Shown in pieces: positions 17,631-21,442 of a stretch of 64,000 nucleotides of DNA. A program made the translations under genes and the position numbers. The notes beneath the pieces are model-generated. The model had not been told where the DNA came from, ran no database searches, and worked only from the letters and a program-made list of their open reading frames with translations. The stretch spans positions 1 to 64,000 of the forward strand of contig JADLGO010000008.1 of NCBI GenBank assembly GCA_020849275.1, in the 5' to 3' direction. The stretch comes from Chthonomonadales bacterium. GTDB lineage: Bacteria; Armatimonadota; Chthonomonadetes; Chthonomonadales; CAJBBX01. How positions within the stretch are numbered: position 1 is the first letter of the stretch; each line of letters begins with the position of its first letter.

Positions 17631-18842
17631 TTACTTGTGGATGACCTTCGTCAGGTTGAAGATCGGCATGTAGAGCGCCAGCAGGACGAATCCCACGATC
17701 AGGCCCAGTACGACCGTAAGCAGCGGCTCCAGGAGGCGCGTCAGCCGCTGGACCGCGTACTCGATGTCGCGGTCGTAGAACACCGTGATCTGCCGCAGCA
17801 TATCGTCCATGTTGCCGGACTCCTCGCCCGCGGCGATCATCCGCGTGACCATCGGCGGGAACTGGCCGCTCTGCTCGAGTGGAACGGAGAGCCGCGCGCC
17901 CTCATTCACCTTGGTGATCGCGCCGGTGACGGCTTCCATGATTATGCAGTTCCCGGTGACCCTTGCGGAGGTCTGCATGCCGGAGAGGATCGGCACGCCC
18001 GCCGAGACCATCGCGCTGAAGGTGCGGCAAAGGCGCGATATGGCGATCTTGCGGTTGAGCGAGCCCAACAGCGGCATGCGAAGCTTGATCGCGTCGCAGG
18101 TCCGGCGTCCCCGCTCGGTGGCCTGCCAGCGTTTGGCGAGCCGGAAGGCGACGTAGAGCCCGGCCGCGGCGATGTACCAGTACGAGCGGATGATCTTGCT
18201 TGCGGTCACGAGCATCTGGGTGGGCGGGGGGAGATCCGCCTTGAACTGGGCGTAGACGTTGGCGAAGACGGGAACGACGAAGGTGAGCAGGAAGAACACG
18301 ACGCCCACGGCGGTGACGACCACCGCCGCCGGGTAGACGAAGGCGGCCTTAACCTTCTCGCGCAGCTCCTGCTCCTTATCGAGTTGCTCGGCGGCCACCT
18401 GAAGCGTGTCGTCGAGCGTACCGGAGACCTCGCCGGCCTGCGCGAGCGCCTGGTAGAGCTCGGAGAAGACCTTCGGGTGCTTCGCGAGCGCGTCGGTCAG
18501 CGTGCTCCCTGCGAGCACGTCCGAGCGTATCTCGTTGAGCGCCGCGCGAAGCAGCGGGTTCTGCGTCTGGTCCGCCGTCGTGTAGAGGCACTCGACGAGC
18601 GGAAGCCCGGCTCGCACAAGCGTGGCGAGCTGACGACTGACCACCACCATGTCGTTGAGGGTGATCTTCTTGCGCCGAAAGCTGCTACCCTGCGACCTGG
18701 CATCCCGGGCGACCGAGAGCGTGGTGACGAACAGGTCCTTGCGACGGAGCTGCTCGCGGAGCGCCGCCTCGTCGGTGGCAGCCAGACTCCCGCGGACGGC
18801 CCGGCCGGCCCTGTCTCGCGCGGAATAATGAAAAGTCGGCAT
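17631..18842 (-). CDS. pilC: PilC/GspF inner-membrane platform protein
   Basis: The 403-residue polytopic protein has the two tandem T2SSF domains (about 70-190 and 270-395) and three transmembrane segments (near 170-190, 220-240, 375-395). It starts with the PTFHYSARDRAGRAVRG motif typical of PilC and GspF. It forms the platform linking the cytoplasmic ATPase to pilin assembly. GAGGAGG precedes the ATG. It lies 12 bases after the ATPase gene and 173 bases before the pilin gene. PilC and GspF cannot be told apart by sequence alone here. Confidence 0.9.
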   Translation of the reverse strand: MPTFHYSARDRAGRAVRGSLAATDEAALREQLRRKDLFVTTLSVARDARSQGSSFRRKKITLNDMVVVSRQLATLVRAGLPLVECLYTTADQTQNPLLRAALNEIRSDVLAGSTLTDALAKHPKVFSELYQALAQAGEVSGTLDDTLQVAAEQLDKEQELREKVKAAFVYPAAVVVTAVGVVFFLLTFVVPVFANVYAQFKADLPPPTQMLVTASKIIRSYWYIAAAGLYVAFRLAKRWQATERGRRTCDAIKLRMPLLGSLNRKIAISRLCRTFSAMVSAGVPILSGMQTSARVTGNCIIMEAVTGAITKVNEGARLSVPLEQSGQFPPMVTRMIAAGEESGNMDDMLRQITVFYDRDIEYAVQRLTRLLEPLLTVVLGLIVGFVLLALYMPIFNLTKVIHK

Positions 18843-18854
18843 TCCGCCTCCTCG

Positions 18855-20612
18855 CTAGGCAGCTCGGGGCTGCCCGATTACCGCTTCCGCGTCCTCTTCG
18901 CTCAGCAGGACGCGGCATACCTCGTCGAGCGTCGTCGACCCCTCCAGCGCCTTGCGGATCCCGGACTCGCGCATGCTCGCCATCCCGTCCTGCTGGGCGA
19001 TGTCCTTGAGCACGGCGCCGCCCGCGTTGGAGAGGACGGCCTGGCGCAGCCGGTCCGAGATGCGCATCACCTCGAAGGCCGCCGTGCGGCCCTTGTACCC
19101 CCGACCGCCGCAACGTGGGCATCCGCGGCCGCGCTGGAACGTGGCGTTTCCAAGCCGCTCGGGCCCCACGCCGAGCGAGCGAAGCAGTGCCGGGTCCGGG
19201 TCACAGGGTTCCGCGCATCCAACGCAGACCTTGCGAAGCAGGCGCTGCCCGATGACGCCGATCAGTGCGGAGACGATCAGGAACGCCTCGACGCCCATGT
19301 TCTGCAGGCGGACGATGGCGCCGGGAGCATCGTTGGTGTGGAGCGTACTGAAGACGAGATGGCCGGTTAGCGCCGCCTGCACCGCGATCTCCGCGGTCTC
19401 GGTGTCGCGGATCTCGCCGACCATGATGACATCGGGATCCTGACGCACGATGGTGCGCAGGCCGGTGGCGAACGTCAGGCCGATCTTGGCGTTGGCCTGC
19501 ATCTGGCTGATGCCCGCCAGGTTGTACTCGACCGGGTCCTCGACCGTTATGATGTTGCGGCTGACGTCGTTGATCTGGTTGAGCGACGTGTAGAGCGTTG
19601 TCGACTTGCCGGATCCCGTGGGCCCCGTGACCAGGATCATGCCGTGCGGACGGCGGATGAAGGCTTCGTACAGATCGCGCTGATCGCTGAAGAAGCCCAG
19701 CGCGTCCAGCGGGACGCTGATGCCCGATTTGTCGAGCACCCTGAGCACGATCTTCTCCCCGTAGATGGTCGGCATCGTCGAGACGCGCAGGTCGTAGGGG
19801 CCGGCGTCGGTCGCGAACACGATGCGCCCATCCTGGGGTCGGCGGCGCTCGGCGATGTTCAGGTGCGACATGATCTTGATGCGCGATACCACGGCGGCAT
19901 GATGGTGCGTGGGCAGCGTCATCTGCTCGTACAGGATGCCGTCCATGCGATAGCGGACCCGGACCGCCTTTTCCTGCGGCTCGATGTGCACGTCGCTGGC
20001 GCCGGCCGTGATCCCGCCGGCGACGATGGAGTTCACCAGGCGAATGATCGGCGCGTCCTCCGCCAGGTTAACGAGCTGGTCGACCGAGAGCTCGGGCTCG
20101 GCGCTGGGCCCACCCTCGGAGTCCTCGATCTCCTTCAGCACGCTCTCGGCGGCGTTTCGCACCGTGTGGGCGCGGCTGAAGCCGTCCAGGATCTCGGCGT
20201 TCAGCGCGAGCATCGGCACGATCTTCAGCCCTGTCATCAGGTGAAGGTCGTCGACGACCATCACGTTGAGCGGGTCGCTCATCGCCACGAACAGGCGCCG
20301 GCCCTCCACGTCGTAGGGCAGCAACCGATGACGCCGCTGGTACTTCTCCGGCACCATCGCGGCGGCCTGTGGTTCGATGCGCGCCTCGGAGAGGTCCACG
20401 TAGGGCACGCCGACCATCGCCTCCAGCAGTTTGCCGATCGCCCTGGCCGGCACGGCGCCCATGTGGACGAGAACCTCGCCGAGAAACTCGCCGGTCTGGC
20501 GCTTGCGATCGAGCGCGGCCTCGAGCTGTGCCTCGGAGATGACTCCGTCGGCCAGGAGCCGCTGGCCTATCTGGCCCATCATCGCCACGGACGACAGCAT
20601 CGTGTTCTGCAT
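18855..20612 (-). CDS. pilB: PilB/GspE assembly ATPase
   Basis: The 585-residue protein has an N-terminal T2SSE_N domain (about 15-150, with the VPYVDLSEARI segment) and a C-terminal secretion ATPase domain. Visible motifs are Walker A GPTGSGKSTTLY, the Asp box, Walker B VGEIRDTETAEIA and the His box LVFSTLHTND. A tetracysteine zinc site (CVGC at one end, CPRC at the other) is intact. It powers pilus or pseudopilus assembly with the downstream PilC. The start at 20612 is preceded by GGAAGG. No PilT retraction ATPase or secretin is in the window. Confidence 0.9.
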   Translation of the reverse strand: MQNTMLSSVAMMGQIGQRLLADGVISEAQLEAALDRKRQTGEFLGEVLVHMGAVPARAIGKLLEAMVGVPYVDLSEARIEPQAAAMVPEKYQRRHRLLPYDVEGRRLFVAMSDPLNVMVVDDLHLMTGLKIVPMLALNAEILDGFSRAHTVRNAAESVLKEIEDSEGGPSAEPELSVDQLVNLAEDAPIIRLVNSIVAGGITAGASDVHIEPQEKAVRVRYRMDGILYEQMTLPTHHHAAVVSRIKIMSHLNIAERRRPQDGRIVFATDAGPYDLRVSTMPTIYGEKIVLRVLDKSGISVPLDALGFFSDQRDLYEAFIRRPHGMILVTGPTGSGKSTTLYTSLNQINDVSRNIITVEDPVEYNLAGISQMQANAKIGLTFATGLRTIVRQDPDVIMVGEIRDTETAEIAVQAALTGHLVFSTLHTNDAPGAIVRLQNMGVEAFLIVSALIGVIGQRLLRKVCVGCAEPCDPDPALLRSLGVGPERLGNATFQRGRGCPRCGGRGYKGRTAAFEVMRISDRLRQAVLSNAGGAVLKDIAQQDGMASMRESGIRKALEGSTTLDEVCRVLLSEEDAEAVIGQPRAA

Positions 20613-20754
20613 GGGTGGTCCTTCCGGTGGACGCGTGGCATCGGTCGGTCGCACGGGGCACGCCCGGGCCCCGTGCAGGCCCTGCACGGGTTATTCCGCA
20701 GATCGTGCGGCCGCGTTAGGTCCTTTTTGGGGGAGGCGAGGGAGCAAAGGCGGC

Positions 20755-20790
20755 GCCGCTCCGCCGGCGGGAGTTCGCGGGCGGAGCGGC
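20755..20790 (-). terminator. Hairpin downstream of the Fe-S carrier gene
   Basis: An 11-bp GC-rich stem (20755-20765 with 20780-20790) with a 14-base loop lies 34 bases past the stop on the minus strand. Only a short CCTTT follows, so termination may be weak. The rest of the 210-base gap down to 20612 holds another palindrome (20671-20689) and nothing coding. Confidence 0.4.
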
Positions 20791-20824
20791 GAGGGGGGCG
20801 CGAGCGCGATGGCCGTAAGGCCGA

Positions 20825-21328
20825 TCAGTGGCCGCCGCAGGAGCAACCGTGGCCCTCGGGCTCCTCGGTCGCGGAGGATGAGCCGCAGCCGCAGGAGCAG
20901 CCGCCGCTCTCGTGTCCCTGTGTCGAGGCGGACGAGCCGCAGCCGCACGAACAGCCGCCGCCCCCGCCCTCCTCTGTCGAGAAGGAGGAGCCGCACCCGC
21001 AGCCGCTCACCGCGTTCGGGTTGTCGATCTTGAAGCCACCGCCCATCTCGTCCTCGACGAAGTCGATGCTGGAGTCACGCATATGCTGCACGCTGGTGGG
21101 GTCGATCAGGACGCGCACGCCATGCTGGGTGAACTGCAGATCGCCTTCCTCGACCTCCTCGGCGATGGCCATGCCGTACTGGAGTCCGCTGCACCCGCCG
21201 CCGGACACGAAGACGCGCAGCGCGGCGCCCGGCATTCCCTGGCGCTCGAAGAGGCCGCGGATCTCCGTCGCCGCCTTCTCGGTCAGCGTGACCGGGGCCG
21301 TCTCCCGCAGTGTGGTGGATGTGGTCAC
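20825..21328 (-). CDS. A-type Fe-S carrier (IscA/ErpA/HesB) with a repeated Cys-rich tail
   Basis: The 167-residue protein has a normal A-type carrier domain (about 12-115). The three cluster-binding Cys are in the expected places: one in GGGCSGLQYG and two in SGCGCGSS. Where the family normally ends, this protein continues with an 18-residue unit, CSCGCGSS plus a polar linker, repeated twice, and a final CSCGG. That adds eight Cys. The core should pass Fe-S clusters to apoproteins. The tail may hold extra metal or clusters, which is inference. The GTG start has AAGGAG 6 bases upstream. The gene is monocistronic with its own near-consensus promoter. Confidence 0.88.
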   Translation of the reverse strand: MTTSTTLRETAPVTLTEKAATEIRGLFERQGMPGAALRVFVSGGGCSGLQYGMAIAEEVEEGDLQFTQHGVRVLIDPTSVQHMRDSSIDFVEDEMGGGFKIDNPNAVSGCGCGSSFSTEEGGGGGCSCGCGSSASTQGHESGGCSCGCGSSSATEEPEGHGCSCGGH

Positions 21329-21399
21329 TGAATGCTCCTTGTGGTGTTCGCAAGCGCGGGGCGGCACGCCCCGGTACTTCCTACGCCGACCCGTAAATG

Positions 21400-21412: not shown

Positions 21413-21442
21413 ATTATACGCCACGCACGGTGCCCGTGGCAA
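21413..21442 (-). promoter_or_regulatory. Promoter of the Fe-S carrier gene
   Basis: On the minus strand, -35 TTGCCA (21437-21442) and a perfect -10 TATAAT (21413-21418) are separated by 18 bases. The leader to the GTG start is about 75 bases. Confidence 0.65.

What the first reader, a model, noticed from the sequence alone, without database searches (positions are those of the whole stretch)
20825..21010. Tandem 18-residue Cys repeats added to an A-type Fe-S carrier
The normal end of an IscA/ErpA protein, SGCGCGSS, appears to have been copied. Two further units of CSCGCGSS plus a 10-residue polar linker follow, then CSCGG, giving eight additional Cys. Period and composition point to tandem duplication of the cluster-binding tail. 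A carrier able to hold several clusters, or a metal-storage tail, would be new for this family.
Basis: partly seen in the sequence, partly recalled or inferred. Interest (0 to 1): 0.6.

Follow-up and report, generated by a model that had tools for sequence, protein, structure and literature searches.

The report
ErpA carrier with amplified cysteine tail
An otherwise normal iron-sulfur cluster delivery protein in an Armatimonadota bacterium has a metal-binding cysteine tail copied into an exact array of 18-residue units; a shorter second cysteine box turns out to be standard in relatives from two phyla, so this is an unusually expanded version of a feature not described in the papers I read.

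Summary
The gene (window 20825-21328, minus strand, 167 aa) is an ErpA-type A-type carrier with all three canonical Cys (C46, C110, C112). Its tail is a register-perfect 54-nt array: SGCGCGSSFSTEEGGGGG | CSCGCGSSASTQGHESGG | CSCGCGSSSATEEPEGHG | CSCGGH, with eight extra Cys. The copies match at DNA level in linkers as well as boxes, so tandem duplication is well supported.

The claim that extra tail Cys are new for the family needs correcting. Of 119 ErpA-type relatives with an intact CGCG box (Armatimonadota, Chloroflexota, Dormibacterota), 117 carry at least two further tail Cys. Twenty-eight of 400 Chloroflexota genomes have a second CGCG box at the same 18-residue spacing, and the closest relative has a CGC there. 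What is unique is the amplification: 1 of 291 Armatimonadota genomes. The period probably comes from unequal exchange between two pre-existing boxes. In the same genome the suf-operon SufA paralogue has no tail.

Most likely the units are extra CxC arms that pick up or hold [2Fe-2S] clusters beside the single core Cys46. This is inferred; metal stoichiometry is untested. Neutral expansion and metal storage remain open. New variant of a known kind.

The parts
20825..21328 (-). ErpA-type A-type Fe-S carrier gene, 167 aa, GTG start with AAGGAG ribosome site at 21335-21340
   Evidence: PF01521 1.3e-17; NCBIfam ErpA equivalog NF010147 117.5 bits against cut-off 117; start read
21191..21193 (-). codon of Cys46, the core cluster ligand (GGGCSG)
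   Evidence: invariant in alignment A1
20993..21001 (-). codons of canonical tail Cys110 and Cys112 (CGCG box)
   Evidence: invariant in alignment A1
20954..21007 (-). unit 1, SGCGCGSSFSTEEGGGGG (ancestral box plus linker)
20900..20953 (-). unit 2, CSCGCGSSASTQGHESGG
20846..20899 (-). unit 3, CSCGCGSSSATEEPEGHG
20828..20845 (-). terminal motif CSCGGH, counterpart of the conserved C-terminal Cys motif of relatives
21413..21442 (-). promoter-like site TTGCCA-18-TATAAT, 11 of 12 matches, about 85 nt upstream of the start
   Evidence: consensus scan only, 1 found against 0.1 expected
18855..20687 (-). downstream pilB (T2SSE ATPase; likely CDS 18855-20597), next to erpA in three other genera of the family

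Best explanation
This is the organism's ErpA: an A-type carrier that hands Fe-S clusters to target proteins and works apart from the suf-operon SufA. Its disordered tail already carried, as in its relatives, the canonical CGCG box and a second, terminal Cys motif about 18 residues on. Unequal exchange between these two similar GC-rich boxes duplicated the 54-nt interval, producing two extra hybrid units (terminal-type start CSCGCG plus box-1-type linker SS-ST-E). Each unit is an additional CxCxC arm. In the published model for eukaryotic ISCA proteins the C-terminal CxC takes a [2Fe-2S] cluster from the donor and passes it to the upstream Cys, freeing the CxC to fetch a second cluster. By analogy the extra arms would let one chain capture or hold further clusters or iron while Cys46 is occupied, raising local capacity rather than creating independent folded cluster sites. 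Shown: identity, canonical Cys, array, duplication signature, lineage restriction, tail-less SufA paralogue. Inferred: direction and mechanism of duplication, retention of box Cys by selection, and the whole biochemical role.
For: ErpA identity. A-type fold confident, tail from about residue 108 below pLDDT 50. Duplication. An 18-residue second box exists without amplification: closest syntenic relative L012 (CGCGSSFSTDEEGGGCDSCGCH, CGC at +18), Ktedonobacter and Dormibacteraeota tails, and 28 Chloroflexota ErpA genes; +18 is the commonest CxC spacing. Between units 2 and 3 the 8-residue box has 0 nonsynonymous and 3 synonymous differences, the linker about 8 and 3 (Fisher p 0.006 on nonsynonymous counts), which suggests the box is maintained. 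SufA paralogue at the end of the suf operon ends CGCGTSFAAE with no tail, so the tail belongs to the ErpA role. CxC extraction model: PMC7730481.
Against: No metal, cluster or activity data. Only one core Cys per chain, so extra arms may never be filled. The selection test rests on very few differences, and there is no same-genus genome to compare. The only glutaredoxin found is a dithiol CPDC type, so the Grx donor of the published model may be absent. Tail length and Cys number vary widely among relatives, which also fits a tolerant disordered tail.
Confidence: 0.45

Rival explanations
1. Neutral or nearly neutral expansion: GC-rich repetitive boxes in a disordered tail slip or recombine, and extra units are tolerated without a new function; the conserved terminal Cys motif alone matters.
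For: Tail length after the box ranges from 3 to 51 residues (median 20) among relatives; other lineages show different expansions such as GGCGS repeats (L018, L156, L028). The array is confined to one genome of 291.
Against: Box residues of units 2 and 3 are unchanged at protein level despite synonymous differences, while linkers diverged; Cys are rare in this genome's neighbouring proteins (0.9%).
Confidence: 0.3
2. Metal storage or buffering tail: the CxCxC units act like a metallothionein fused to ErpA, holding Fe, Zn or Cu rather than Fe-S clusters.
For: Eight extra Cys as CxC/CxCxC plus His residues in linkers (HESGG, EGHG, GGH).
Against: No metallothionein family match; the boxes keep the exact CGCG sequence of the cluster-binding motif; a shorter form of the tail is kept in most relatives with only 2-3 extra Cys.
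Confidence: 0.12
3. Redox swinging arm: the terminal CxxC/CxC reduces or protects the active-site Cys or client thiols, as C-terminal CxxC tails do in ribonucleotide reductases; extra units lengthen or multiply the arm.
For: Terminal C-x(0-2)-C lies at the very end in 102 of 119 relatives, with His or Tyr after it in 76; tail predicted disordered. The ribonucleotide reductase comparison is from general knowledge.
Against: The extra units copy the CGCG cluster box rather than a CxxC redox motif; no partner evidence.
Confidence: 0.13

Closest known systems
ErpA (NCBIfam NF010147; ATC-I of Vinella et al. 2009, PMC2682760; ErpA1 of Lu et al. 2020, PMC7144353)
   Same: Core domain, three canonical Cys, predicted A-type fold, gene outside the isc/suf cluster.
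   Different: E. coli ErpA ends CGCGSSFSI directly after the box; here 51 residues follow with eight more Cys.
ErpA-type proteins of Armatimonadota and Chloroflexota with a second Cys motif
   Same: Same core and a second, terminal Cys motif 12-30 residues after CGCG; in Ktedonobacter-like and Dormibacteraeota forms an exact second CGCG box at +18.
   Different: They have one extra motif (usually 2-4 Cys); the window has two additional intervening units (8 Cys).
SufA of the same genome (G000:C59:72907-73239)
   Same: A-type carrier with CGCG box.
   Different: In the sufBD-sufS-sufU cluster and ends CGCGTSFAAE with no tail.
Eukaryotic ISCA1/ISCA2
   Same: C-terminal CxC takes [2Fe-2S] from glutaredoxin before rearrangement to the upstream Cys (PMC7730481), the model used here by analogy.
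   Different: Single CxC arm per chain; no repeats.
Metallothioneins
   Same: CxC and CxCxC density.
   Different: No family match; the repeats are copies of a cluster-binding box on a folded carrier domain.

Membership tests
ErpA / A-type carrier | Fe-S_biosyn (PF01521) domain and ErpA equivalog score | tested here: met
   PF01521 64.4 bits against 26.3; NF010147 117.5 against 117, just over
ErpA / A-type carrier | Three Cys in C-Xn-C-X-C arrangement | tested here: met
   C46, C110, C112, invariant among 60 aligned relatives
ErpA / A-type carrier | A-type beta-rich fold | tested here: met
   AlphaFold2 pLDDT above 90 for most of the core; sequence match to solved HI1723 (2apn) 1.8e-28
ErpA / A-type carrier | Binds and transfers an Fe-S cluster | not testable with these tools
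   Needs purified protein
ErpA rather than SufA/IscA | Gene not in an isc or suf operon; separate SufA-type paralogue present | tested here: met
   Neighbours are pilB/pilC and a nitronate monooxygenase; SufA-like paralogue in suf cluster
NfuA | C-terminal Nfu domain with CxxC | tested here: not met
   Only PF01521 found; NfuA models match residues 14-107 only and far below cut-off
Metallothionein | Match to a metallothionein family | tested here: not met
   No Pfam match besides PF01521
Metallothionein | Binds several soft metal ions per chain | not testable with these tools
   Needs ICP-MS

The most novel reading that the evidence does not exclude
A carrier that holds more than one Fe-S cluster per chain: the amplified CxCxC arms, paired across the dimer, bind additional [2Fe-2S] clusters that are passed in turn to Cys46, making ErpA a multi-cluster shuttle; the one-arm version is widespread in Chloroflexota and Armatimonadota.
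Probability: 0.18. Interest if true: 0.68.

Novelty: new variant of a known kind. Interest (0 to 1): 0.42.

Why it matters
A-type carriers are described as ending in a single CxC motif (PMC7144353 names two Cys in the C-terminal tail). Here a whole ErpA branch in two or three phyla has a second Cys box, often at a fixed 18-residue spacing, and one lineage has amplified it. That gives a natural series (no tail, one extra box, several boxes) to test whether the C-terminal arm limits cluster capture, a step still debated for these proteins.

Tried and rejected
Chance Cys-rich reading frame on GC-rich DNA: rejected by canonical Cys, alignment and periodicity. Assembly collapse or expansion of one repeat: unlikely, since copies differ at 14-16 of 54 sites with synonymous changes, but reads were not available. 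NfuA-like fusion or other added domain: no match. Widespread multi-unit form in the phylum: rejected by an exact pattern search. The same pattern in Chloroflexota gave 44 genomes; 28 are ErpA genes with two boxes and the others look like unrelated GC-rich repeats. Plasmid-borne relatives gave only ordinary Proteobacteria, Bacillota and archaeal forms. Literature searches for a described second Cys motif in ErpA found none among open papers; subscription papers were not covered. Structure library search was not run, as sequence matches to solved A-type carriers were already clear.

Full report
OBSERVATION. The gene lies on the minus strand at 20825-21328 (GTG start, AAGGAG upstream) and encodes 167 residues. 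The core is an ordinary A-type carrier: PF01521, just above the NCBIfam ErpA equivalog cut-off, and matched to solved H. influenzae HI1723 at 1.8e-28. Cys46, Cys110 and Cys112 are the canonical ligands and are invariant in a 60-sequence alignment. AlphaFold2 gives a confident core and a disordered tail, the canonical CGCG box included.

THE ARRAY. After the core come SGCGCGSSFSTEEGGGGG, CSCGCGSSASTQGHESGG, CSCGCGSSSATEEPEGHG and CSCGGH, each full unit exactly 18 residues (54 nt). TRF finds the period; lag-54 DNA identity is 0.74 and no codon shuffle of 5000 reaches it. Linkers, which carry no Cys, also match (19-21 of 30 nt; p 0.00005-0.0015), so this is copying rather than convergence on a box. 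Between units 2 and 3 the box differs only synonymously (3 sites) while the linker has about 8 nonsynonymous and 3 synonymous differences, a small-sample hint that the box is maintained.

WHERE IT IS FOUND. The organism belongs to Armatimonadota; its named relatives are Chthonomonadales. The family set holds no same-genus genome. In three genera of the family the orthologue sits beside pilB and pilC as here and has a short intact tail...CGCGSSFSTDEEGGGCDSCGCH (G005)...CGCGSSFATEEGEGASAGGGGGCGSCSSH (G003)...CGCGSSFSTEEGASGGGCGSGGCCSR (G002). A pattern for two CGCG boxes 18 residues apart hits 1 of 291 Armatimonadota genomes, only at this locus, twice. A CxCGCG pattern occurs at six places in this genome, two of them here.

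THE CORRECTION. Extra tail Cys are not new in this branch. Of 119 ErpA-type sequences with an intact box, 117 have two or more further Cys, and 102 end in C-x(0-2)-C near the C-terminus. These sequences were collected by similarity to the window, so they represent Armatimonadota, Chloroflexota and Dormibacterota rather than all bacteria. In 400 Chloroflexota genomes, 28 ErpA genes read like CGCGHSFKTADGGGEARSCGCG, a second CGCG box at exactly +18, and +18 is the commonest CxC spacing overall. Outside this branch, E. coli ErpA and a haloarchaeal protein have no extra Cys, and a Priestia and a Methylococcus protein have one. Most tail-less rows in the tree fall in a separate, well supported group (SH-aLRT 99) that includes this genome's own SufA at the end of a sufBD-sufS-sufU cluster.

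HOW THE ARRAY PROBABLY AROSE. With two similar boxes 54 nt apart, unequal exchange duplicates precisely the interval between them. This explains the 18-residue period, why units 2 and 3 start like the terminal motif (CSCG) but continue like box 1 (GSS.ST), and why unit 3 and the terminal motif share their first 12 nt. This is inference; no intermediate was found.

WHAT IT PROBABLY DOES. In ISCA proteins the tail CxC is reported to extract [2Fe-2S] from glutaredoxin first; rearrangement to the upstream Cys then frees the tail for a second cluster (PMC7730481). Extra CxCxC arms would extend that step. Against a simple reading, the only glutaredoxin found here is dithiol CPDC, so the donor may differ. 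Neutral expansion (0.3), a redox arm (0.13) and metal storage (0.12) remain open. None of the functional claims is shown.

NOVELTY. Lu et al. 2020 (PMC7144353) and Vinella et al. 2009 (PMC2682760) describe the A-type family; the former describes the C-terminal tail as holding two Cys, and in the passages I read neither lists a second Cys box. I therefore call this a new variant of a known kind: an amplified form of an apparently undescribed branch-wide tail motif.

Noticed in passing
L036, L039, L040, L042, L043, L044 (genomes G004, G006, G007, G009, G010, G011): Six genomes of the same family have a single, divergent A-type protein: GGGCSG is altered (AGQSCSG, AGASCSG, ADRDCSG) and the CGCGSSF box is lost or shifted, leaving tails such as NCGGCSCGSGGCG; possibly a relocated cluster site.
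   Followed up: partly
G292, G650, G656 and 25 other Chloroflexota genomes; L118, L127: ErpA with an exact second CGCG box 18 residues after the first, at the C-terminus (SCGCGH in the loci read in full), as a recurrent feature.
   Followed up: yes
L018, L156, L028, L024, L050: Separate tail expansions with a different unit, GGCGS repeated two to four times, in other ErpA proteins of the same order.
   Followed up: partly
window 17631-21328; L033, L035, L037: erpA sits directly upstream of pilB and pilC in at least four genera of the family, an unexplained conserved linkage of Fe-S delivery with type IV pilus genes.
   Followed up: partly
L100 (genome G296): The record titled Proteobacteria bacterium Centralia_MAG_377 carries a Ktedonobacter-like ErpA and was drawn in the Chloroflexota set, so its title looks wrong.
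   Followed up: no
G000:C21:31291-31470: The only glutaredoxin found in the genome is a dithiol CPDC type; no monothiol CGFS glutaredoxin was found.
   Followed up: partly
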